From contig NZ_CP046640.1 of assembly GCF_017751145.1 (NCBI RefSeq), positions 3,204,137 through 3,268,136 of the forward strand: 64,000 bases of DNA, in the 5' to 3' direction. A program made the position numbers and the translations under genes. Positions 14,335 to 42,048 of the stretch are shown in pieces; within the stretch, counting starts at the first letter, position 1, and the number at the start of each line of letters is the position of its first letter. The notes under the pieces were generated by a model. It searched no databases. It was not told where the DNA came from and saw nothing but the letters and a program-made list of their open reading frames with translations. The DNA is from Iocasia fonsfrigidae (GTDB lineage Bacteria; Bacillota; Halanaerobiia; Halanaerobiales; DTU029).

Positions 14335-14612
14335 ATAAAAAAACCCCCATTCCATTTAGGAACGAGGGTAACTCGCGGTACCATCCTTTTTGACAAAAAA
14401 GTCCACTTATTTATTGATAGTATAATAAGTTGCTACTATCTGTCAGAATAACGGCTGACATCCGGAAAGGTATACTTATTTAATTCAACCCTTAAACTCC
14501 CAGGTGGGTTTCACTAATAGGTATTTACCAAGCTCACACCAGCCCTGACTCGCTTAAAACACCCTGAATTAGCTACTATTCCTGTTCATAGTTTTTAGAA
14601 ATATCTTATTGT
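14335..14612 (-). promoter_or_regulatory. T-box leader of proBAC, proline specifier
   Basis: The leader contains the T-box sequence AGGATGGTACCGCG (14373-14386). An 11-bp terminator stem with two G-U pairs (CCTCGTTCC against GGAATGGGGG) and a T7 run end just before proB. Upstream lies a stem I with GGTGTGAG, then GAAACCCACCTGGGAG, where the specifier is CCC or CCA; both code proline. Binding of uncharged tRNA-Pro would form the antiterminator and switch on proline synthesis. Confidence 0.88.
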
Positions 14613-29893: not shown

Positions 29894-29954
29894 TAGTATT
29901 ACCTCCATTATTAAATTTTTGCCTGATTTTCTACCCCCTTTAAGCTGCTGATTA

Positions 29955-30078
29955 CTCAACAGTTTTAAAGAATAGATTTAAGTCTAATCAGTAAGACCTG
30001 GAGGCATCCGCCGAAAACTCGATAAACCTCCCCCTCGTCAACTTAGATTTCTTCCCGTTCAATCTAAGTCCTGGCGCT
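29955..30078 (-). ncRNA. glmS self-cleaving ribozyme/riboswitch
   Basis: On the minus strand, AGCGCCAGGACT opens the element. It is followed by the hallmark segments GTTGACGAGG, GGTTTATCGAG, TTTTCGGCGGATGCCTCC and AGGTC. Cleavage is expected between A30078 and G30077 when glucosamine-6-phosphate binds, which destabilises the glmS message. It sits 60 bases upstream of the TTG start. The match to the family consensus is extensive. Confidence 0.95.
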
Positions 30079-30139
30079 TTTTCTTTTTTTATATGAATCA
30101 CCTCCTTATAATATATCTTAGATTATTACAATCCACTCT

Positions 30140-30185: not shown

Positions 30186-31535
30186 TTAATTTAACTCACT
30201 TTTTATAACTTCAATTAATTTTTCTTCCAGCTCTATCAATAATCCCTCATTTTTACCTTCCAACATTATCCGTACTAATGGTTCTGTTCCAGAAGCCCTG
30301 ACAAAAACACGCCCATTCTCTGATAGGGCCTGTTCAGCCTTGCTAATTTCACGCCTGATACTGTCATTATTTTCCCACTGCTCTTTGTATTTTACTTCTA
30401 CATTTGCTAATCTCTGTGGCCAGGGATCCATCAAATTGCTTAATTCATTAAGTGTTCTACTCCTTCTTTTAACTATTTCAACTATCTGTACAGCAGTTAA
30501 AACCCCATCACCTGTACGATTATAGTCTAGATAAATAATATGACCCGATTTCTCGCCACCAAGATTATAATTATTTTCTAACATCTCTTTAAGAACATAC
30601 CTATCGCCATTATCAGTAATTACCACTTTACCACCGGCACCCTCAACAGCCTCCTTTAATCCCAGATTACTGTAGGCTGTAGTGACCAGGGTTTGCTTTT
30701 TTAATTCCCCCCTCTGCAGTAAATCTGCTGCCCAAACAGCCATAATCTTATCCCCATCTACTACTTCACCTTTATTATCTATCATTACTATCCGGTCAGC
30801 ATCCCCATCATGAGCTATTCCCAAATCTGCGTTTTCTCTCACAACCAGCTCTTTTATAAGTTCTGGATGGGTTGAGCCACAGTCTAAATTTATTTTATCA
30901 CCTGCTGGATGGTTGTTTGAGACTACTATTTCTGCCCCCAACCTTTGTAATACCTCAGGAGCTACTCTATAAGCTGCCCCATTCGCACAATCAAGGGCAA
31001 TCTTTAAACCCGTAAAATCAACATCAACTGTGGAAATAAGATAGTCAATATACTTATCTGTTAGCTCATAATTATCATTACTATTACCAATTTCTAATGA
31101 AGTTGGTGATGGTATAGTATCATAATGGTATTTTATAAGGGCCTCAATCTCCTCTTCCATCTGATCACTAAGTTTATAGCCATTCTTATCAAAAAACTTA
31201 ATACCATTATCAGCAATAGGATTATGTGAAGCAGATATCATAACTGCCCCTTCTACAGCCAATTCAGCTGTTAAATAGGCTACACCAGGGGTAGGTATAA
31301 TACCAAGTCTAAGCACATCAATTCCTGCTGATGCCATTCCTGCTGTAAGAGCAGACTCTAACATATCTCCGGAGACCCTTGTATCCTTGCCTATCAACAT
31401 GGTTGCTTTATCATTTCCTTTATAGTGACGGGTAAGATAATAACCAGCAGCCCTACCCAGTTTATAGGCTAATTCACCGGTAAGTTCCCGATTAGCTACT
31501 CCCCTCACACCATCAGTACCAAATAATTTTGCCAT
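30186..31535 (-). CDS. glmM: Phosphoglucosamine mutase
   Basis: This 449-residue enzyme interconverts glucosamine-6-phosphate and glucosamine-1-phosphate, the step after GlmS. It starts [19 protein letters not shown]. The catalytic phosphoserine loop is [17 protein letters not shown] (about residues 97-113), the metal loop is HDGDADRI, and the substrate loop is EKSGH. The C-terminal [15 protein letters not shown] is typical. It lies directly upstream of glmS, so both steps of the pathway are adjacent. Confidence 0.97.
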
Positions 31536-31631: not shown

Positions 31632-31761
31632 GACTTTCTGTGTATACTCGAAAAGGTATAAATAGGGGATTATATATCCCTGAACGAAGTTAAGGTATTA
31701 CCGTTGAGTGAAGGGATATATAATCCCCGGCGTATATACTGATACTTTTCGAACAGACTCT
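31632..31761. repeat. Dispersed palindromic repeat R1, copy B (full-length form, inverted)
   Basis: This is a 130-bp element. The right end, read on the minus strand, is CTGTTCGAAAAGTATCAGTA, the same as copies A and C. The left end carries the related CGAAAAGGTATAAATA. Two perfect 16-base inner arms, GGGGATTATATATCCC (31665-31680) and its complement (31713-31728), enclose a 32-base loop. It fills most of the glmM-CPBP gap. Confidence 0.85.
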
Positions 31762-31824: not shown

Positions 31825-32547
31825 ATGAATGATAAAAAAGGACTTATCAGCTATATAAGTTATAAAGATGTCTTAATAATACTGGGTATCTGGTATTTAA
31901 TGCTCTCTTTAAATATGATCTCTAAAGGAGTTAACCTGGATTATACTGTCCTTAATAATTTTTTTCACTTTTTATTTATCATAAGTGGTAGATTCTTATC
32001 TTTTAGCTTTATTGTATTCTACATTACTTCACTATACCCAATTTCTTTTGCTGATTTAGGAATTCACTTAAAAAATCCTCTGAGACAACTAAGGATCTCG
32101 TCCTCTACTTCAATAGCACTAATAATACTGGTTATTATATTCATCAACATTCCCCTTACCCTTACAATGGAAAAGGCTTTTTCCCCACTGATAAAAGTTA
32201 ATAGTCCTGAAGTATTTGTCACCAGTATCTTACCATTACTACTACTTATTATTGCAAATTTAGTAATAGCCCTCAGCGAACAACTTATACTGGTCAATAT
32301 CTTCTACAAATTATTTTCTAAAACACTATTTAATAAATTTATATCTATTATCATGTCAAGCCTTTTATATTCTTTTTTATTACTTAATTTTGACCCCGGC
32401 AGAATACTAATCAATTTTTTGGCTGCTGCTATTAGTCTATTTATTTATAGTAAAACTGAATCAATACTAACTTCGTCCTTTTTTATTGCTAGTTATTATT
32501 CCATCTATATCATTTACATATTTGGATGGAATTATATAGGATTTTGA
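31825..32547 (+). CDS. CPBP-like polytopic membrane protein with degenerate active site
   Basis: The protein has 240 residues with about seven membrane helices; the ATG has GGGG 7 bases upstream. The position of the helices and the stretch NLVIALSEQLILVNIFYKLF resemble the first motif (EExxxR) of CPBP/Abi intramembrane proteases. Only one Glu is present, however, and the later His motifs are absent. It is therefore either an inactive family member or an unrelated membrane protein. It is the only plus-strand gene in this half of the window. Confidence 0.5.
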   Translation: MNDKKGLISYISYKDVLIILGIWYLMLSLNMISKGVNLDYTVLNNFFHFLFIISGRFLSFSFIVFYITSLYPISFADLGIHLKNPLRQLRISSSTSIALIILVIIFINIPLTLTMEKAFSPLIKVNSPEVFVTSILPLLLLIIANLVIALSEQLILVNIFYKLFSKTLFNKFISIIMSSLLYSFLLLNFDPGRILINFLAAAISLFIYSKTESILTSSFFIASYYSIYIIYIFGWNYIGF

Positions 32548-32579: not shown

Positions 32580-32606
32580 AAAGACCAGGTATACAACCTG
32601 GCCTTC
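32580..32606 (-). terminator. Terminator of the zinc-ribbon gene
   Basis: A stem GGCCAGGT/ACCTGGTC with a 5-base loop is followed by T6 on the minus strand. It lies between two genes that converge on it. Confidence 0.8.
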
Positions 32607-32647: not shown

Positions 32648-32800
32648 TTAGCTTATATTATTAAATATACTTAGTGTTGGATAGAGTGTGCTGGTTGTTT
32701 CCTTTTCTTCATAAATTGCACCACTACACTTCTTGCAGTACTCAACACCAGACCAATTGTGTGTTCCACATACAGGACACTGTACTTTTTTAGTTTTCAT
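32648..32800 (-). CDS. 50-residue zinc-ribbon protein
   Basis: The ATG at 32798-32800 has GGTGG upstream. The peptide has two CxxC knuckles (Cys8/Cys11 in CPVC and Cys22/Cys25 in CKKC), then a charged linker and a short hydrophobic-polar tail. It is a typical rubredoxin-like zinc ribbon of unknown role. It has its own consensus promoter and terminator, so it is a genuine single-gene unit. Confidence 0.75.
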   Translation of the reverse strand: MKTKKVQCPVCGTHNWSGVEYCKKCSGAIYEEKETTSTLYPTLSIFNNIS

Positions 32801-32848
32801 TTAAACCACCCTTTCTTATTTTCTTATTGTCTTATAGGTTCTGTCTAT

Positions 32849-32877
32849 AGTATAACAGCCGACTGCTTTTTTGTCAA
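32849..32877 (-). promoter_or_regulatory. Promoter of the zinc-ribbon gene
   Basis: On the minus strand TTGACA (32872-32877) and TATACT (32849-32854) are 17 bases apart, about 50 bases ahead of the start codon. Confidence 0.75.
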
Positions 32878-32914: not shown

Positions 32915-33898
32915 CTATTTAAACTCACCATATATTTCCTTACCACATTGTGGGCATTTATTACCTTTCATTAATTTTCTGCTAGTATAATAATCCCTGA
33001 CAAGCAATTCCCGACCACAGACCGGGCATCTTGTTATTTTTCCGAAATCACCCTGAATATTACCAAGGTAAACATAATCCATATATTTCCTGGCAATTTG
33101 ATATACCTCCTCCATTTTGCCCAACGATGTAGGTGCTTTTTTGAATTTATATGCTGGAAAATATCTGGTCAGGTGAACTGGTATATCAGAATCAATAGTA
33201 CTAAGCCAGGAAAACATCTTTTCTACCTCTTTTTGTGAGTCATTTTCTCCGGAAATAACTAAAGTAGTAATTTCTAGATGAACCCTGGCAGCCATTAATG
33301 TAATATTTTCTAGAACAGGGTTTAATGTACCTTCACAAATGTCCTTATAGAAATTAGTCCTAAATGATTTTAAATCAACATTTATTCCATCGAGAACTGG
33401 TAATAAAGTGTGTAATGGTTTTTCATTGATATAACCATTAGTAACCAGTACAACCCGCAGATCACGCTCCTGGGCCAGGCTAGCTGTTTCCAAAATATAT
33501 TCATACCATATTGAAGGCTCTGAATATGTAAAAGCAATACCAATAGTATTTTTTTGACACGCTAATTCTACTAATTCCTCAGGTGAAACTGTTGTTAAAG
33601 CCGGTTTCTGCTGACTTATCTCCCAATTTTGGCAATATTGACAACGAAAATTACAGCCATATGTCCCAACTGATAAAACCTTTTCCCCTGGATAGAAATG
33701 ATAGAGTGGTTTTTTCTCAACTGGGTCTACTGCCAGGGAACTAATCTTCGCATAGGTATCACTATATAAACTACCGTCAATGTTAATTCTCCCCTGACAA
33801 ATACCATTCTTCCCAGGTGAAATAACACAATAATGTGGACACAATAAGCATTGAACAGTATTATTTTTCCTTGGCTGATAAAAAGCAGCTTCCTTCAT
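32915..33898 (-). CDS. AmmeMemoRadiSam system radical SAM enzyme
   Basis: The protein has 327 residues. A radical-SAM cluster motif CxxxCxxC uses Cys82, Cys86 and Cys89 (GCNFRCQYCQNW). An N-terminal cysteine set (Cys17, 20, 24, 34) and a C-terminal zinc ribbon (CPVC...CPQC) add further metal sites. It resembles pyruvate formate-lyase activating enzymes but sits with AMMECR1- and MEMO-type genes, the defining context of the AmmeMemoRadiSam set. The reaction is not known. Confidence 0.88.
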   Translation of the reverse strand: MKEAAFYQPRKNNTVQCLLCPHYCVISPGKNGICQGRINIDGSLYSDTYAKISSLAVDPVEKKPLYHFYPGEKVLSVGTYGCNFRCQYCQNWEISQQKPALTTVSPEELVELACQKNTIGIAFTYSEPSIWYEYILETASLAQERDLRVVLVTNGYINEKPLHTLLPVLDGINVDLKSFRTNFYKDICEGTLNPVLENITLMAARVHLEITTLVISGENDSQKEVEKMFSWLSTIDSDIPVHLTRYFPAYKFKKAPTSLGKMEEVYQIARKYMDYVYLGNIQGDFGKITRCPVCGRELLVRDYYTSRKLMKGNKCPQCGKEIYGEFK

Positions 33899-33909
33899 TT
33901 GATTCTCCT

Positions 33910-34428
33910 TTACTTATGTCTATTAACTTTAAAACGGTATATTTCCATTTCTTCATCTGGTAAAATTCCTGCTTTCTTCCTGGCTATCTCTAGTTGTTGT
34001 GAAAAATCACTAATTCCCGGCAGAGCAGGAAGCAATACACCCTTCCTAATCCCGTTTTCTACTATTACACCATATTTATCAGGATCCAGCTCTGAAGACT
34101 TATTTACTTTTTCAGGTTTACTTAATACATCAACAGTTATATCTAAATAAGGTAATTCTCCTTCTACTACAGGATTAAACCTGGGGTCCTGACTACAGGC
34201 ACTAATAGCATTATTAATAATTTCCTGGGCAATATTCTCACAACACGGTTCAATTGTACCAATACAACCGCGTAATTGCCCATCCTTTTTTAAAGAAACA
34301 AAAACAGCTGCCTGCCTTACAAACCCCTTATCTAATGGATAGTCAGGGGTTCTTTTCCTCCCATCAATAACAAAATCATTGATGGTCTGCCTGGCCAACT
34401 CTACATATTTATCCCTTTTTTCCTTCAT
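33910..34428 (-). CDS. AMMECR1-domain protein (AmmeMemoRadiSam protein A)
   Basis: This 172-residue soluble protein carries the family hallmark LRGCIGTIEP (about residues 53-62) and ITVDVLSKPEKV. AMMECR1 proteins occur in all domains of life, and their biochemical activity is unresolved. The gene overlaps the MEMO-like gene by one base and lies 11 bases before the radical SAM gene, so all three are one transcript. Confidence 0.9.
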   Translation of the reverse strand: MKEKRDKYVELARQTINDFVIDGRKRTPDYPLDKGFVRQAAVFVSLKKDGQLRGCIGTIEPCCENIAQEIINNAISACSQDPRFNPVVEGELPYLDITVDVLSKPEKVNKSSELDPDKYGVIVENGIRKGVLLPALPGISDFSQQLEIARKKAGILPDEEMEIYRFKVNRHK

Positions 34429-35258
34429 TAAATATCACTCCCTGGATAAAAGCCAACAACAGCATATCCTACACCAAAGGTGCCTTCATATGACTTAACT
34501 TCAGTTTTAAAAGAAAGGCCATCAAGAGCCCCTAACATAATAATTAAAGGACGCAGACCACATTCTCCAGCTTTATCTATTAAACCTTTCTCTATTTTAA
34601 GGGCTTTTGAAAAGTTCTCATTATCTAATATTTCTACAATTTTTCTGTCAAACTCTTCTCCTCGCGGATTAAATCCAGCGGGTGCACCGGGTTTTAAGCG
34701 GTGTGAGAGATCACCACTGGCAATAATAACCGCCTTCAGGCCCAGTTTATCGACTACTTGCTGAATAATCCTGCCAAAACTGTAAAGAGTATCATATTCC
34801 ATTAAACCCATAGTAATAGGTACTAAAGGAACATCCAGACCAGCCTGCTGGATAAAATAAAGGGGGATAAGAACCCCATGATCAAGTAAACCTTGATAAT
34901 TATAAATTTCTAACTCAGCAGAACTTAGCGTTAAAACCTCAATATTATTAATCTCTGAAGATTCTCTAATCTCCTGAATTAAATCCCGATCTGTAGACGT
35001 TTCTAATTTCACTTCTGAACAGCCAAACTCAGAAAAATCACCAGCAAGATACTCCTGATCCAGAATACTTATAGCATCTGTAAAAACTGGACCATGTGGA
35101 CTAATTGTTATCAAGACATCTGGCTGACAATCCTTAACCTCTTCAGCCAGTTCTTTAAGGCTATTAATTGTCTTACTAATTCCTTCCCGTCTCTCTCCTC
35201 CGATTTCAGGTATGATCAACGGAGGGTGTGGAGATAAACCTGCCATTAGAATACCCAT
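34428..35258 (-). CDS. MEMO/LigB-fold protein (class III extradiol dioxygenase-like)
   Basis: The protein has 276 residues. Potential metal ligands lie in GLSPHPPLIIPEIG (residues 7-20), SPHGPVF, LLDHGVLIPLYF and SGDLSHRL, the spacing seen in the MEMO/LigB fold. In many genomes this domain is fused to AMMECR1; here the two are separate overlapping genes. It may be an oxidoreductase or a metal-binding scaffold. The substrate is unknown. Confidence 0.85.
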   Translation of the reverse strand: MGILMAGLSPHPPLIIPEIGGERREGISKTINSLKELAEEVKDCQPDVLITISPHGPVFTDAISILDQEYLAGDFSEFGCSEVKLETSTDRDLIQEIRESSEINNIEVLTLSSAELEIYNYQGLLDHGVLIPLYFIQQAGLDVPLVPITMGLMEYDTLYSFGRIIQQVVDKLGLKAVIIASGDLSHRLKPGAPAGFNPRGEEFDRKIVEILDNENFSKALKIEKGLIDKAGECGLRPLIIMLGALDGLSFKTEVKSYEGTFGVGYAVVGFYPGSDI

Positions 35259-35350
35259 AATGTCTTACCCCCTTGTACTATTATCTATTTATTTTATCTT
35301 ATGGTTATAATTCTCTAATTATTATATTTATCCTTTAAGTGGGAATTATC

Positions 35351-35393
35351 TGAACAAAGTAGCTACGTCATCTTAAATTGATCGAGAATAATT
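35351..35393. repeat. Left copy of a 43-bp direct repeat flanking two structured elements
   Basis: The unit starts TGAACAAAGTAGCTACGTCA and ends AAATTGATCGAGAATAATT. It is repeated in the same direction at 35754-35796 with 37 of 43 positions identical. Together they bracket two R2 elements and a 400-bp interval without genes. Confidence 0.85.
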
Positions 35394-35510
35394 TTAATTC
35401 TTCCGCTTGTCGTTCACTCCGGCATCCGTGCCTCCGTTCTCTGTCACAACTTTTTGTTCCAGCGTCCTGCCTCCACAAAAAGTTAGAGTCGCTACAGAAT
35501 TAAAATTATT
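35387..35510 (-). repeat. Structured intergenic element R2, copy 1
   Basis: The element is 124 bp, closed by a perfect 14-bp outer stem (AATAATTTTAATTC/GAATTAAAATTATT). Read on the minus strand it contains TAGCGACTCTA, a second stem (AACTTTTTGT/ACAAAAAGTT) with AGGCAGGACGC in its loop, and GTGAACGACAAGCGGAA before the closing arm. Copies 2 and 3 share these core motifs but use different outer stems. No ORF is present. Confidence 0.85.
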
Positions 35511-35530
35511 ACTAGGCTAGCTTAATCCAG

Positions 35531-35703
35531 ACAGATATATTTGTTGGACGCTCTAGAAATTATCCGTAGGCACGACGCCGAAGGAGAATTTCTCGACAGT
35601 AAGCGTAAGCAGGACGCTGTAGCGCAACCTCAAACTGTTCTTGTACAGTCTAGTTAAATACGGAGTACCTGTGGTGCACGACAAGGGAAACAAATATATT
35701 TGT
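35531..35703 (+). repeat. Structured intergenic element R2, copy 2
   Basis: The element is 173 bp with a 15-bp outer stem (ACAGATATATTTGTT/AACAAATATATTTGT, one mismatch that can be G-U in RNA). Its core motifs GGACGCTCTA, GTAGGCACGACGCC and GTGCACGACAAGGGA match copies 1 and 3. A second stem AGAAATT/AATTTCT encloses the GGCACGACGC motif, in the same position as in copy 1 but with different bases. Confidence 0.8.
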
Positions 35704-35753
35704 CGGTCTTTAAAGTTATCCACAATTTCAAAATTGCATAGTTTTCCTATACC

Positions 35754-35796
35754 TGAACAAAATGACTACATCATTCTAAATTGATCGAGAATAATT
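35754..35796. repeat. Right copy of the 43-bp direct repeat
   Basis: The partner of 35351-35393, in the same orientation. It ends in AAATTGATCGAGAATAATT, identical to the left copy over the last 20 bases, and runs into the terminator of the following gene. Confidence 0.85.
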
Positions 35797-35804
35797 AAAA
35801 TAAA

Positions 35805-35843
35805 AATACCAGGCAGAGGAATAGAATCTTACCTGGTATTTTA
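35805..35843 (-). terminator. Terminator of the methionyl-tRNA synthetase-like gene
   Basis: On the minus strand a stem AAATACCAGG/CCTGGTATTT is followed by a T-rich tract (TTATTTT), immediately beyond the stop codon. Confidence 0.75.
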
Positions 35844-35847
35844 TCTA

Positions 35848-37845
35848 CTATTTATATTGACTTGGGTGTTTTTCAAAGAAATCTACTCTTCGTTCCAGAA
35901 ATTTAAATTCATGTTCTTCTGGCCTATCCATAAAGGCATATACAGGTTCAAAAATCCGCTCCCAGTTCCAGAAGTCGTCTGCTTCATCAAGATTTAAGTA
36001 TTCAAGTATCATCTCTGTCCCTTTTGGAGCAACAGGATGCATTAAAACAGTAGCTGTTCGCAGCATATGAAAACCATCAATAAAAAGCTGTAATAGGATA
36101 CCCTTATCATCTTGATCTTTATATTCTTTATATTTCTTTGACCAGTATTTATTGATACCGCGAATATAGTTATCCATGAGACTCATAACTTGATGGAACT
36201 CATAACTGTAGACTGCTTTTTCATATTCAAAGATAATTTCTTTTGCTTCATTCAGTACCTCCTGGCTGACCTCACCTATAGGTAGTTTGCCATCATTAAA
36301 TTTCTGCATAGTATAGAAACAGGAGCGAACGATATGGTTAAAGACATTTGACAACAGATTGCCCTCTTTAAGAACAGGATCACCATGGCTTCCACCCTTG
36401 GGGTTTAATGGTTTAGGTTTAAATCCTACACTCTTAATACCGAGTCCAAAGCTTAAGAAATGAGCCCTTAACTGCTCTGCTGTGTAGTAATCAAGTAACT
36501 CTTTGGCCATAGGTGGTTTAACCTTCCCACTGCTACTGGCTTTTTTATCCAGGAAAAGAAGATGGTTGTTAGCTATTAAGTCCGGTAATTGCAGCTCACC
36601 TTCTGGCGGTTCTACAGAAGGATTATCACCCTGCCCCATAAACATGGCCATTTCCGCAGGACCATAGAAATATACATTATCTTCTCCAATAAACTGATAA
36701 ACCTTTGCCCCTTTAGAACACCACCATTCCTTCCATTTGCTTTTATCCTTATTCTCCTTTTCTAGATAGGTCTGTGTAAAGGAAATCGGAGCCCATAATG
36801 ATTCCGGCCAGACCCAGACAGTCAAATCATCCAGTCCTTCCAGGGTAGGGGCATCTACTCCCCACTCAATATTACCTGTTAATCTGAAAGGCACCAGGGT
36901 TTTCCCATTACGAAATTGCACAGCATTTTCAGCCAGGATAGAACAGGCTTTTTCCCGGTCTTCAAGTTTGTCAAAAACAAGCTCAAAAGATGACTTGTTT
37001 TCATCATCTTCTAAAGTGAAATCTGGTAACTTATCTTCTATTTTATTGAGCAGTTCAAGATATTCATTCTTCACATAAATAACTGGTGGTTCCAGAAATT
37101 CTTCAATACTTTTGATCATAAAGTGCCTGGCACCAGGGTTTTCTTCTAGCCCTTCAACCCACTCTCGAAGGAGTTCCTGAAATTCGTCAAGTTTAAAATA
37201 CCAGTTAGTTACAGCCCTCATTTCCGGTTTCTTTCCTGACAGAGTGCTCTTAGGGTTAATCAAATCCTTCTCCATATACTGATGGCCTAATGAACATTCA
37301 TCTGCATAAGCCTTTTCAGATTGACAACCATCAATCGGGCATTGTCCAACAACCTGACGTCCATTAAGAAACACCTCATGTTCAGGGTCATAAAATTGAG
37401 ATGTTGTTATTTTTTTAAGATGTCCATTCTCATACAGTGTTTTAATGAAATTATAGGAATACTGCTGGTGAATCTCTCCAGCACGTCCTATACTGGAAGC
37501 TGCAAAAAGATTGGTAGCAATGTAATATGATTCCAAAGCCTCTTTTTGAGACTGATGATTAGAACGTACATAATCTTCAATGCTACCCTCAAAAGATCCG
37601 TCACTGACTGATTGACGATAATCTTCCACTATTGGTGAACCATAACAATCAGTTCCAGAAACAAAGATTACATTTTCTTTACCGATACGATCTCGCAAAA
37701 AACGTGCTAAAAAATCAGCATGTATAAAGACTCCTCCTATATGTCCAAAATGAAGCTCTTTATTCCCATAAGGCATTCCTGCTGTTATAACTGCACGCTT
37801 CGGAAATTCAGGTCTATCTTTACTTAAATCATACTTTAATTCCAA
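35848..37845 (-). CDS. Divergent methionyl-tRNA synthetase (class I tRNA ligase family)
   Basis: The protein has about 665 residues. The N-terminus has AVITAGMPYGNKELHFGHIGG, the HIGH-type ATP site written HFGH, then FVSGTDCYGSPI, a zinc knuckle region (CPIDGCQS...ECSLGHQ), LTVWVWPESLWAPIS and the tRNA-binding helical domain. The KMSKS loop is altered to DKKASSSGK. There is no C-terminal EMAP-type tRNA-binding domain. Start chosen: TTG 37845 behind GGAAGG; a GTG at 37854 lies inside that site. It may be a second MetRS or a paralogue with another role. Confidence 0.75.
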   Translation of the reverse strand: MELKYDLSKDRPEFPKRAVITAGMPYGNKELHFGHIGGVFIHADFLARFLRDRIGKENVIFVSGTDCYGSPIVEDYRQSVSDGSFEGSIEDYVRSNHQSQKEALESYYIATNLFAASSIGRAGEIHQQYSYNFIKTLYENGHLKKITTSQFYDPEHEVFLNGRQVVGQCPIDGCQSEKAYADECSLGHQYMEKDLINPKSTLSGKKPEMRAVTNWYFKLDEFQELLREWVEGLEENPGARHFMIKSIEEFLEPPVIYVKNEYLELLNKIEDKLPDFTLEDDENKSSFELVFDKLEDREKACSILAENAVQFRNGKTLVPFRLTGNIEWGVDAPTLEGLDDLTVWVWPESLWAPISFTQTYLEKENKDKSKWKEWWCSKGAKVYQFIGEDNVYFYGPAEMAMFMGQGDNPSVEPPEGELQLPDLIANNHLLFLDKKASSSGKVKPPMAKELLDYYTAEQLRAHFLSFGLGIKSVGFKPKPLNPKGGSHGDPVLKEGNLLSNVFNHIVRSCFYTMQKFNDGKLPIGEVSQEVLNEAKEIIFEYEKAVYSYEFHQVMSLMDNYIRGINKYWSKKYKEYKDQDDKGILLQLFIDGFHMLRTATVLMHPVAPKGTEMILEYLNLDEADDFWNWERIFEPVYAFMDRPEEHEFKFLERRVDFFEKHPSQYK

Positions 37846-38156
37846 ACATATCACCCTTCCTTTAGTGTTTTCACCTATGTTCTATGTAAATACACAAACT
37901 TTGATTAATTATAACTATTATATATTATTATACATACTTAGCCAAAAAAAATAAAGCTAAGTCTTGTTTTTTATGTAAAATAATATATTTAAAATACTTG
38001 AAACACAATTCTACTTAATAATTCTCAAAGACAACCCGTCCTATATATATGTGTGTGTAATTAAAAAATGGCAGCAAAATTAAATTAGCTGCCATTTTTG
38101 AGTAGATCCCTCAGAACTTTTTCAACCATAGGTTCACTGTTTTAAATCATATATAT
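37846..38156. other. Intergenic region with the uxaA terminator only
   Basis: These 310 AT-rich bases contain the terminator at 38063-38099 and a short (TATA)(TGTG) run near 38043-38058. I saw no gene and no leader RNA for the synthetase-like gene. Confidence 0.5.
38063..38099 (-). terminator. Terminator of the larA-uxaA unit
   Basis: A 12-bp perfect stem AAAAATGGCAGC/GCTGCCATTTTT with a 12-base loop continues in T's on the minus strand, about 60 bases past the dehydratase stop codon. Confidence 0.85.
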
Positions 38157-40169: not shown

Positions 40170-42048
40170 GTCGAGTAAGCGGGGCTTTACAACCCCAACT
40201 CCTCACAGAACCGTACGTGCCCTATTTAGGCATACGGCTCTTCACTCGATTATTCACCTAACATAACTAGCACCAGCACCTAATCTATATAAATTTACTT
40301 TTATTCTTGGCTTGACAATAGGATATTTCTCCAAGAATATTTCGAACTTCTCCCAGTCAAAGCTTTTCTTTTGACTGCGTCTGTTTAACCATTTATAAAC
40401 TAGCTTTTGAACCTCATCATACAGGCTATCAATACTTTTGCTGTTATCTGATACTGCATAATAGTTGTATGTTCCTGTTAGTTTTCTGTTTAACTTCCTC
40501 ATTAGTTCTTTTACTGGAAGAGTTCTATTATATTTTAGCCAGGATTTACATCTCATTATACTACGATGATATCGCTTATTACTTGTCTTTCTCTTTAGTC
40601 GTTTGATTCCATCCTTACATTTACCCATATAATGGGTAAATCCAAGAAAATCAAATGTGTCATTGTCATCATCAGCAGATACATTTACTATCTTAGTTTT
40701 CTCTTCTGATAACTCTAAACCGAATTTGGATATTCTTTCTTTCATTGCTTTATAGAAGTATTTTACATCTTCTTTATACTGTAGGCAAAATATTATATCA
40801 TCTGCGTATCTCACCATGTAAGCTTTACCCTTTAACTCTTTACGCATTGTTTTATTAAACCATAGGTCAACAACATGATGTAGATATAAATTCGCCATAA
40901 TTGGAGAACAGACTCCACCTTGCGGTGTTCCTTGTGGAGTGTCATATTTTATTCCTGCCTCCATGACTCCAGCCCGAAGAAGTCTCGATATGAGTCGTTG
41001 TATATTAGGATCTTTAATTCGATGGTCAATGAATTTCATCATCCACCCGTGGTCTACATTATCAAAGAATCCTTTAATATCTGTATCAACTACATAGTTA
41101 ATATCATCTCTGTTAACTATTCTTCCTAATATTCTCAAGGCATCATGACAGTTTCTTCCTGGACGAAAACCAAATGAACATTCAAGAAAGTCTTCTTCAT
41201 ATATCGCATTTAGAATCTTTGATAGTGCCTTTTGAACTAGTTTGTCTTCGTATGCTGGAATCCCTAGCGGTCTCTTCTTCCCATTTTCTTTTGGAATATA
41301 TACCCTTTTCGCAGGTAATGGCCTATATGCCCATCTTTTCATTCTAGCTGTTAAGCTCTTAACATTCCCTGGAAGATTCTTTCCATACTCCGCTTTTGTT
41401 ACTTCATCTACTCCAGCTGCTTTGTTTCCAGCTAGTTCATGATGACATTTGACTATCAATTCATAATTAATTAGATGTATTAGTGATGTAAATCTTTCAT
41501 TAGGTCTATTTCTAGCTACTTCAGCTATTCTTGCAAGTTTCGTTTCCACATTTTCACCTATCTCTGTGTATAGAATATGTTTCCCTTTTAAGATTAATCT
41601 TGTGTAATCGCCTTCCCATCCACAGGCATTACTCTGCTTCCTCGGTACTATGCGATTATCCGACTCCCTGTAATATTAGATGTCCTTACTTTGTTATCGC
41701 TTGGTTACATCCTATCTCTCTGCGTAGAAATTACAGGGCCTCCCAAGTTAACAATATCATATCTATGTATAGCATGCGGAGGTCTCCGACCCCGGGGTGT
41801 TATTGTATTCTCGCTTATCGAATACTATAATGTTGCCTTCTGCTCAGTCGACAGCATCGGCCTTTCCCAATCTCCAAGATTTCGAGGCTCAATCCCTTCA
41901 GCTAAATGCTTACCGCCTACTACCTAACTGTTTACGCTTAACATCTATGGTTACCCATTAAATGTCCAAAACTCGCTATGAGTGGTTTGCTAAACCTTCC
42001 TCAGTAGGAATCCCACCTACTATATGATATGCTCTTTTCTTGGCGCAC
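40170..42048 (-). mobile_element. Group II intron, complete, inserted in a larA-type gene
   Basis: The intron is 1,879 bases. The 5' end is GTGCG (42048-42044). Domain V lies at 40208-40240 (GAGCCGTATGCC...GGGCACGTACGGTTC). A domain VI hairpin with a bulged A (GGGGTTGTAAAGCCCC) leads to a 3' end in AC at 40170. The last six exon bases, CAGTCG (42054-42049), pair with CGACTG in domain I (41850-41845), a good IBS1-EBS1 match. The maturase gene lies in domain IV and stops just before domain V. All parts needed for splicing appear intact. Confidence 0.93.
40254..41549 (-). CDS. ltrA: Group II intron reverse transcriptase/maturase
   Basis: This 431-residue intron-encoded protein starts at GTG (41549) with AGGTG upstream. 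The reverse-transcriptase domain has RPLGIPAYEDKLVQKAL, FGFRPGRNCHDAL, TPQGGVCSPIMANLYLH and the catalytic YADD (about residue 248). A maturase X domain follows (FLGFTHYMGKCKDG...YYAVSDNSKSIDSLYDEVQK). There is no HNH endonuclease domain, so the intron probably retrohomes without second-strand cutting by its own nuclease, as other En-minus introns do. Confidence 0.95.
   Translation of the reverse strand: METKLARIAEVARNRPNERFTSLIHLINYELIVKCHHELAGNKAAGVDEVTKAEYGKNLPGNVKSLTARMKRWAYRPLPAKRVYIPKENGKKRPLGIPAYEDKLVQKALSKILNAIYEEDFLECSFGFRPGRNCHDALRILGRIVNRDDINYVVDTDIKGFFDNVDHGWMMKFIDHRIKDPNIQRLISRLLRAGVMEAGIKYDTPQGTPQGGVCSPIMANLYLHHVVDLWFNKTMRKELKGKAYMVRYADDIIFCLQYKEDVKYFYKAMKERISKFGLELSEEKTKIVNVSADDDNDTFDFLGFTHYMGKCKDGIKRLKRKTSNKRYHRSIMRCKSWLKYNRTLPVKELMRKLNRKLTGTYNYYAVSDNSKSIDSLYDEVQKLVYKWLNRRSQKKSFDWEKFEIFLEKYPIVKPRIKVNLYRLGAGASYVR

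What the first reader, a model, noticed from the sequence alone, without database searches (positions are those of the whole stretch)
32915..35258. AmmeMemoRadiSam operon: MEMO-fold, AMMECR1 and radical SAM genes fully coupled
All three proteins of this widely conserved set of unknown function are encoded on one overlapping transcript. The MEMO-fold and AMMECR1 parts, fused in many genomes, are separate genes here. The radical SAM protein has three cysteine clusters. A zinc-ribbon gene with its own promoter and a CPBP-like membrane gene lie next to it, and I cannot say whether they belong.
Basis: partly seen in the sequence, partly recalled or inferred. Interest (0 to 1): 0.55.

Follow-up and report, generated by a model that had tools for sequence, protein, structure and literature searches.

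The report
Conserved radical-enzyme operon, role unknown
The window holds an intact copy of a widespread three-gene set that works with radical chemistry and whose job is unknown; this copy is ordinary for its bacterial order, but its relatives include a sister set that looks built to work outside the cell membrane, which narrows what the chemistry could be for.

Summary
Confirmed: three genes in a row encode AmmeMemoRadiSam proteins B, A and the radical SAM enzyme, each over its NCBIfam cut-off. Only B and A overlap (1 nt); the radical SAM starts 11 nt after A. Co-conservation is near perfect: of 149 genomes in the phylum, 114 have AMMECR1, 113 of these the radical SAM, and 35 have neither. 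B and A are fused in about 101 of the 114 but separate in 38 of 38 genomes of this order. B scores as LigB-type (155.7 bits; Memo 40.2) and its model lies nearest TK2203, yet it keeps a Cys at MEMO1's iron-ligand position. The zinc ribbon adjoins the radical SAM in 11 of 41 relatives, under its own conserved promoter, but has no match in 18 of 41 that all hold the triad: a neighbour, not a part. The CPBP gene is a convergent neighbour. New lead outside the window: a sister radical SAM clade with Tat-like signals, beside membrane spermidine-synthase-like proteins and, in several phyla, signal-bearing Memo-AMMECR1 fusions. The locus itself is a new member of a known kind.

The parts
34428..35258 (-). 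protein B, LigB/Memo superfamily (276 aa), first gene of the operon
   Evidence: TIGR04336 37.0 bits (cut-off 26); PF02900 155.7 bits, PF01875 40.2 bits; AF2 model pLDDT 95.5, nearest solved fold 5hee Z 34.2; H11, H55, C233 conserved
33910..34428 (-). protein A, AMMECR1 domain (172 aa), overlaps B by 1 nt
   Evidence: TIGR04335 134.8 bits (cut-off 99); PF01871 148.6 bits; R53-G54-C55-x-G57 invariant in 76 of 76
32915..33898 (-). radical SAM enzyme (327 aa), 11 nt after A
   Evidence: TIGR04337 310.9 bits (cut-off 220); CxxxCxxC at 82-89 plus N- and C-terminal four-Cys groups invariant in 34 of 34; AF2 model nearest PFL activating enzyme 3cb8, Z 23.9
32648..32800 (-). 50-aa zinc-ribbon protein; conserved 3' neighbour in part of the order, judged not a part of the triad
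   Evidence: PF24463 30.3 bits (cut-off 28); next to the rSAM in 11 of 41 relatives, no match in 18 of 41
32849..32877 (-). promoter of the zinc-ribbon gene, TTGACA-17-TATACT with TG before the -10
   Evidence: 11 of 12 matches; in 10 of 10 rSAM-adjacent copies that the script could assess TTGACA 6/6, -10 at least 5/6, spacer 17
32580..32606 (-). terminator-like hairpin after the zinc-ribbon gene, 11 pairs and T tail
31825..32547 (+). CPBP/Rce1-like membrane protein (240 aa), convergent neighbour, not part of the operon
   Evidence: PF02517 27.6 bits (cut-off 22.4); found convergent in the loci of 27 of 38 order genomes, window included

Best explanation
This is the AmmeMemoRadiSam set of a halanaerobial bacterium, and the three proteins act as one enzyme system. 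Shown: the genes are present, intact, in one run on one strand, and are kept and lost together; the radical SAM has the predicted fold of pyruvate formate-lyase activating enzyme with a four-Cys N-terminal group and a C-terminal zinc ribbon added; B has a conserved His/His/Cys site; A has an invariant RGCxG motif. Inferred: B and A form one unit (fused in most of the phylum); the radical SAM uses a 5'-deoxyadenosyl radical to take a hydrogen from a substrate; the B-A unit binds and finishes or uses the product at an iron(II) or other metal site in B, without O2. Weakly inferred: the substrate is a small molecule or an exposed peptide rather than RNA, because a sister set appears to be exported. 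The zinc ribbon and the CPBP gene are neighbours with their own transcription. Likelihood: identity and joint action about 0.95, B-A as one unit about 0.8, the chemistry in this order about 0.3.
For: Family scores. Joint presence 113 of 114 against 0 of 35, adjacency in 110 of 114; of the other 4, three have the rSAM on another contig and one (G023) has none. Families f17, f37, f57 and f72 have members lacking both beside members holding both. B-A fusion in about 101 of 114. All 41 relatives hold all three. Outside: of 50 genomes (of 51) whose rSAM locus showed no LigB-type B, 45 have AMMECR1 and 43 Memo. Active site: Cys of C-G in 67 of 67 LigB-type B rows, aligned with the C-G of Memo rows. 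MEMO1 binds iron through H49, H81, C244, equivalent to LigB H12, H61, E242 (PMC11081632, passages read). rSAM model: PFL-AE Z 23.9, next group NifB 17.4.
Against: Outside this phylum the three genes are often apart: in 40 of 80 GTDB loci neither A nor B was found in the flank held by my HMMs. Eukaryotes have MEMO1 and AMMECR1 without, as far as I recall, this rSAM, so B and A can act alone. E232 next to C233 is also conserved (64 of 67), so which residue binds the metal is open. No substrate, no assay, no transcript data. One genome (G023) has A and B without the rSAM.
Confidence: 0.6

Rival explanations
1. The radical SAM is an activase: like PFL activating enzyme it puts a radical (glycyl or other) on a protein partner, most likely the invariant RGCxG loop of AMMECR1, and B guards or uses the activated A.
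For: PFL-AE is the nearest fold by a wide margin (Z 23.9 against 17.4 for the next group), and 3cb8 is a peptide-bound complex; the RGCxG loop is invariant in 76 of 76; rSAM and A are co-conserved.
Against: Scores far below the activase cut-offs (PFLA 58.6 vs 231.75, YjjW 72.7 vs 250.2); A and rSAM are often apart outside Bacillota; AMMECR1 of aerobic eukaryotes would have no activase (recalled).
Confidence: 0.2
2. The system modifies a nucleotide base or an isoprenoid, the two contexts proposed by Burroughs et al. 2019.
For: Recalled from that paper's abstract (paper not held). Here the rSAM lies within 6 kb of ribosomal L13 and S9 in 7 of 80 loci each, polyprenyl synthetase in 5 of 80, Hpre_diP_synt_I in 5 of 80 and ApbE in 8 of 80.
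Against: The truA-L13-S9 and cdaA-glmM-glmS neighbours look like an old housekeeping gene string. ApbE shows no link in presence: 70 of 114 genomes with the triad, 23 of 35 without (hand count). The sister clade with export signals does not fit an RNA substrate.
Confidence: 0.25
3. B is a working O2-dependent extradiol ring-cleaving dioxygenase and the operon breaks down aromatics.
For: PF02900 155.7 bits; fold nearest TK2203 and then 2-aminophenol, DesB and LigAB dioxygenases, Z 34 to 25, ahead of MEMO1 at 20.8; E232 conserved 64 of 67.
Against: The host order is anaerobic (general knowledge); the cysteine that MEMO1 uses as ligand is invariant (67 of 67); the neighbours are not aromatic-pathway genes; MEMO1 itself showed no activity on gallate, protocatechuate or L-DOPA (PMC11081632, passage).
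Confidence: 0.05
4. The three genes are merely neighbours kept together by slow genome change.
For: The wider neighbourhood (CPBP, glmM) is also kept in much of the order.
Against: Presence and absence match 113 of 114 against 0 of 35 across the phylum and B-A are usually fused; outside the phylum the set co-occurs without being adjacent.
Confidence: 0.03

Closest known systems
AmmeMemoRadiSam system (TIGR04335, TIGR04336, TIGR04337)
   Same: All three members present, adjacent, over cut-off.
   Different: B and A are separate genes, as in all 38 genomes of the order, where most of the phylum has a fusion; B is the LigB-like form of protein B.
TK2203 protein of Thermococcus kodakarensis (PDB 5hee)
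   Same: Closest solved relative of B by sequence (66.5 bits, E 2.6e-17) and fold (Z 34.2, rmsd 2.2, 257 aligned).
   Different: 26% identity in the structural alignment; the phmmer alignment shows no C-G opposite C233.
Human MEMO1 (PDB 7kq8)
   Same: Same fold (Z 20.8, rmsd 3.0, 230 aligned); the C-G cysteine conserved in Memo rows aligns with C233, and C244 binds iron in MEMO1 (PMC11081632).
   Different: 14% identity; B has Glu just before that Cys and scores higher on LigB than on Memo models.
Pyruvate formate-lyase activating enzyme (PDB 3cb8)
   Same: Core fold of the radical SAM, model residues 46-278, Z 23.9, rmsd 2.2, 223 aligned.
   Different: Extra N-terminal four-Cys region and C-terminal zinc ribbon; below the PFLA cut-off.
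AMMECR1 structures MM0484 (1zq7) and PH0010 (1vaj)
   Same: Relatives of A by sequence, 78.3 and 53.6 bits.
   Different: Both are deposited as hypothetical proteins.

Membership tests
AmmeMemoRadiSam system | radical SAM over TIGR04337 cut-off | tested here: met
   310.9 bits vs 220
AmmeMemoRadiSam system | protein A over TIGR04335 cut-off | tested here: met
   134.8 bits vs 99
AmmeMemoRadiSam system | protein B over TIGR04336 cut-off | tested here: met
   37.0 bits vs 26; the HpaD_Fe model scores 40.6 but far below its own cut-off of 315.95
AmmeMemoRadiSam system | the three occur together across genomes | tested here: met
   113 of 114 genomes with A have the rSAM, 0 of 35 without A; 41 of 41 relatives
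AmmeMemoRadiSam system | biochemical activity | not testable with these tools
   no activity is known to me for the system
MEMO-type metal site (His, His, Cys) | two His and a Cys at the positions of MEMO1 H49, H81, C244 | tested here: met
   H11 64/64, H55 66/66, C233 67/67 in B rows; C-G aligned with Memo rows; pairing H11 and H55 with H49 and H81 rests on motif order and the published LigB equivalence; metal binding itself not tested
Class III extradiol dioxygenase (LigB) | fold and LigB model | tested here: met
   PF02900 155.7 bits vs 26.3; Z 34 to 25 against TK2203 and dioxygenases
Class III extradiol dioxygenase (LigB) | Glu as third metal ligand | tested here: inconclusive
   E232 conserved 64/67 but directly before invariant C233; no model coordinates were at hand to measure distances
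Class III extradiol dioxygenase (LigB) | O2-dependent ring cleavage | not testable with these tools
   needs an assay
Glycyl-radical enzyme activase | over the cut-off of an activase model | tested here: not met
   PFLA 58.6 vs 231.75; YjjW 72.7 vs 250.2; PFLE_PFLC 49.7 vs 174.35
Zinc ribbon as a fourth member of the system | same presence pattern as the triad | tested here: not met
   match in 23 of 41 relatives, adjacent to the rSAM in 11; triad in 41 of 41
CPBP gene as a member of the system | same transcript as the triad | tested here: not met
   opposite strand, convergent, in the window and in all other order loci where it was found (27 of 38 in all)

The most novel reading that the evidence does not exclude
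The operon in the window is the cytosolic arm of a chemistry that also exists outside the cell membrane. A sister clade of this radical SAM carries Tat-like signals or membrane anchors and sits beside membrane spermidine-synthase-like proteins and, in several phyla, signal-peptide or lipoprotein Memo-AMMECR1 fusions with DUF362 or DsbD-like partners. If it is exported, it is a radical SAM system working in the envelope, and the shared chemistry of both arms acts on an envelope-accessible substrate (polyamine-like small molecule, surface polymer or peptide), not on RNA.
Probability: 0.3. Interest if true: 0.8.

Novelty: new member of a known kind. Interest (0 to 1): 0.35.

Why it matters
MEMO1 and AMMECR1 are human proteins whose primary molecular function is unsettled (for MEMO1 so stated in PMC11081632), and their prokaryotic relatives travel with a radical SAM enzyme. 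This locus is a clean, single-copy cytosolic set with A and B as separate genes, so each can be deleted or tagged alone, which the usual fusion does not allow. The B proteins here hold both candidate metal ligands (Glu of dioxygenases, Cys of MEMO) side by side, which makes a direct test possible of which branch of chemistry they follow. The sister set with export signals, if real, would remove nucleic acids from the list of likely substrates and would be a radical SAM system in an unexpected compartment.

Tried and rejected
Zinc ribbon as a partner: rejected by presence pattern, although its position and promoter are conserved in part of the order. CPBP as a partner: rejected (convergent). 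ApbE/NusG_II/polyprenyl synthetase neighbourhood as a clue to function: ApbE adjoins the rSAM in some loci (8 of 80 within 6 kb), but its presence does not follow the triad in the phylum (70 of 114 with, 23 of 35 without; against 24); left as a weak lead. glmM/cdaA/L13/S9 neighbours: read as an inherited gene string, not as function. Dioxygenase reading of B: kept as a low rival. A tree of AMMECR1 domains did not decide whether split or fused is the older state: root unknown, many open forks, and the label groups held identical rows twice. Paper searches for the system name gave only passing mentions. In the comparison lists MEMO1 stands below the dioxygenases for B, which excludes nothing.

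Dropped rows and limits: of 51 far loci without a LigB-type B in the flank, L115 was dropped to meet the limit of 50. Of 22 Memo-AMMECR1 fusions fetched, 17 could be scored for a signal by my motif; L173, L208, L210, L212 and L218 could not. G152's zinc ribbon was seen by search but not by the motif script. L162 and L241 hold the same gene. The tables were typed by hand into a script; ApbE counts, the Tat-motif tally and zinc-ribbon adjacency were counted by hand from the outputs named.

Full report
What is there. On the minus strand, in the order of transcription, lie B (34428-35258, 276 aa), A (33910-34428, 172 aa) and a radical SAM enzyme (32915-33898, 327 aa). B and A overlap by one base (TAATG); the radical SAM begins 11 bases after A's stop with an AGGAG in the gap. 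NCBIfam assigns all three above cut-off to the AmmeMemoRadiSam system. 114 bases further lies a 50-aa zinc-ribbon gene (32648-32800) with a near-consensus promoter and a hairpin terminator, then, convergent, a CPBP/Rce1-like gene (31825-32547), then glmM (30186-31535).

Where it comes from. The window lies in one 3.93-Mb contig. The closest named loci in GTDB are Halanaerobiaceae and Halanaerobium, so the host is a member of the halanaerobial order, anaerobes by general knowledge.

Is it more than chance? In 149 genomes spread over the phylum, AMMECR1 (PF01871) occurs in 114 and the radical SAM at 204 bits or more in 113; every genome with that rSAM has AMMECR1, 35 have neither, and one (G023) has A and B but no rSAM. 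In 110 of 114 the genes lie within 3 kb; in three others they are on different contigs of a draft. Families f17, f37, f57 and f72 include genomes that lack both next to genomes that have both, and G034 keeps only a fragment of the rSAM match (118 bits), which suggests joint loss; G145 of f72 is only 79% complete. In 41 relatives all three families are found in 41 of 41.

Fused or split. By open-frame length, B-A is one frame in about 101 of the 114 (100 by the script plus G035), split in ten (G000, G005, G043, G052, G073, G081, G091, G099, G108, G133); G011 is frameshifted, G113 cut by a contig end, and G100 has no LigB match. In the order of the window the genes are separate in 38 of 38 genomes, and fused in the class outgroups G039, G185, G186 and G117.

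What B is. Pfam LigB scores 155.7 bits and Memo 40.2; the nearest solved protein is TK2203. The AlphaFold model (pLDDT 95.5) aligns to TK2203 at Z 34.2, to 2-aminophenol, DesB and LigAB dioxygenases at about 30 to 25, and to MEMO1 at 20.8. Yet in 67 LigB-type B sequences (38 of the order, 29 from GTDB loci), H11 (64/64), H55 (66/66) and C233 (67/67) are invariant where present, with E232 in 64 of 67. In an alignment with Memo-type proteins C233 falls on the Memo C-G cysteine, which is present in 32 of the 33 Memo-side rows; the one row without it, L190, is a wrong frame from my longest-ORF step. In MEMO1 that cysteine (C244) with H49 and H81 binds iron, equivalent to E242, H12 and H61 in LigB (PMC11081632, passages read). 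B therefore has the MEMO ligand set in a LigB-like chain, with the dioxygenase glutamate one residue away.

What the radical SAM is. The core CxxxCxxC (C82, C86, C89), the N-terminal C17/C20/C24/C34 and the C-terminal C291/C294/C315/C318 are invariant in 34 of 34 sequences from many phyla. The model (pLDDT 91.7) is closest to pyruvate formate-lyase activating enzyme (Z 23.9; next NifB 17.4; viperins 16.4), over residues 46-278 only; it is not an activase by the NCBIfam cut-offs.

The neighbours. The zinc ribbon has matches in 23 of 41 relatives (two of its rows are weak, E 0.007) and lies just after the rSAM on the same strand in 11 of them: G000, G149, G152, G159 (two loci), G161, G167, G173, G177, G179, G180, G184. 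Ten of these eleven could be assessed by the motif script, and all ten have TTGACA, a 17-nt spacer and TATACT or TATAAT upstream. Copies away from the rSAM keep a strong promoter too (G172, G169, G166 with a 16-nt spacer; weaker in G178 and G165; G181 sits at a contig edge). It is thus a self-contained small gene that has held one address in three families (f1, f2, f87) and is missing or elsewhere in the rest, while the triad is always there. The CPBP gene is convergent in 27 of 38 order loci and glmM follows in 27 of 38; in family f86 glmM starts 19-150 bases after the rSAM on the same strand.

Beyond the phylum. Of the 80 best GTDB loci, 29 have a LigB-type B with A (25 fused, 4 split); 40 have neither A nor B within the flank held. 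The genomes behind 50 of the 51 loci without LigB-type B still have AMMECR1 (45 of 50) and Memo (43 of 50). The set is therefore conserved as a set, with two forms of B. Frequent neighbours are ribosomal L13/S9 with truA, cdaA-glmM-glmS, and ApbE with NusG_II and Hpre_diP_synt_I; ApbE presence does not follow the triad in the phylum.

A sister set with export signals. Several genomes hold a second TIGR04337 protein of about 380-400 aa. In nine such loci fetched (L197-L205), eight have it beside a 560-850-aa protein with a spermine synthase domain that is related among the eight loci. Around 17 stretches with Memo-AMMECR1 fusions or pairs (L226-L242), nine have a strong rSAM and seven have rSAM, Memo-AMMECR1 and the spermidine-synthase-like protein together. 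Of 18 such rSAM genes, nine begin with an RRxF-type Tat motif (L197, L198, L200, L204, L226, L229, L230, L233, L238), four have a plain hydrophobic anchor or KR form (L199, L201, L234, L241), and five are cut, unclear or without (L202, L203, L205, L227, L240) (hand count). Of 17 scorable Memo-AMMECR1 fusions, 13 start with a strongly hydrophobic segment, several with a lipobox; four do not. DUF362 proteins stand between or beside them in L226, L230, L238 and L240, and DsbD-like proteins in L201 and L241. In a tree of 68 rSAMs the 17 sister rows, with L162 (the same gene as L241), form one group (support 100/98; the bootstrap had not settled), apart from the operon type. Six of 38 genomes of this order (G158, G162, G168, G171, G174, G176) have the sister rSAM; the window's genome does not (its second match scores 22.7 bits). 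Signals were judged by motif and hydrophobicity only. I found no paper using six phrasings for a radical SAM outside the cytoplasm, nor one that joins DUF362, radical SAM, spermidine synthase and Tat signal; most subscription papers, including the key paper of Burroughs et al. 2019, are not held.

Mechanism. Shown: identity, co-conservation, conserved catalytic residues, predicted folds. Inferred: B-A as a unit, H-atom abstraction by the rSAM, an O2-independent metal step in B. The substrate is unknown; the sister set argues for something reachable outside the cytoplasm, but only if its export is real.

Known or new. The system is described (NCBIfam names; 'recently-described Memo-Ammecr1 systems' in PMC7159879, passage; AMMECR1 listed among top uncharacterised archaeal proteins in PMC6393860, passage). 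This locus is a new member, typical for its order.

Noticed in passing
L226, L227, L229, L230, L233, L234, L238 (also L240, L241); L197-L205: Sister radical SAM clade with Tat-like signals or membrane anchors beside membrane spermidine-synthase-like proteins and, outside Bacillota, signal-bearing Memo-AMMECR1 fusions, some with DUF362 or DsbD-like proteins: a possible extracytoplasmic counterpart of the system.
   Followed up: partly
window 32648-32877: Tiny zinc-ribbon gene (CxxCGxxNWSGxxYCxKCSG) with an almost perfect, order-wide conserved promoter, also at other genomic addresses; suggests a strongly expressed small protein of unknown role.
   Followed up: partly
window 35340-35810: The gap between B and metG is made of dispersed repeats: 84 matches in the own genome, for example 93% identity over 275 bases; mosaic, MITE-like.
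   Followed up: partly
window 31665-31728: Perfect 17-nt inverted repeat (GGGGATTATATATCCCT, 30 nt between the arms) upstream of the CPBP gene.
   Followed up: no
window 35848-37854: MetG-like protein scoring far below the methionyl-tRNA synthetase cut-offs (234 vs 587 bits, two stretches): a divergent MetRS.
   Followed up: no
window 40170-40242 and 41780-42013: Two group II intron parts on the minus strand.
   Followed up: no
window 29920-30089 and 14355-14598: glmS ribozyme upstream of glmS, and a T-box leader, both minus strand.
   Followed up: no
G159 contig C1, near 156162 and 254346: The whole operon with the zinc ribbon occurs twice in this relative, about 98 kb apart, with equal scores.
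   Followed up: no
L106, L108, L115, L123, L137, L140, L153, L099: Radical SAM of the system close to ApbE, partly with NusG_II and Hpre_diP_synt_I genes, in several phyla; no presence link in the window's phylum.
   Followed up: partly
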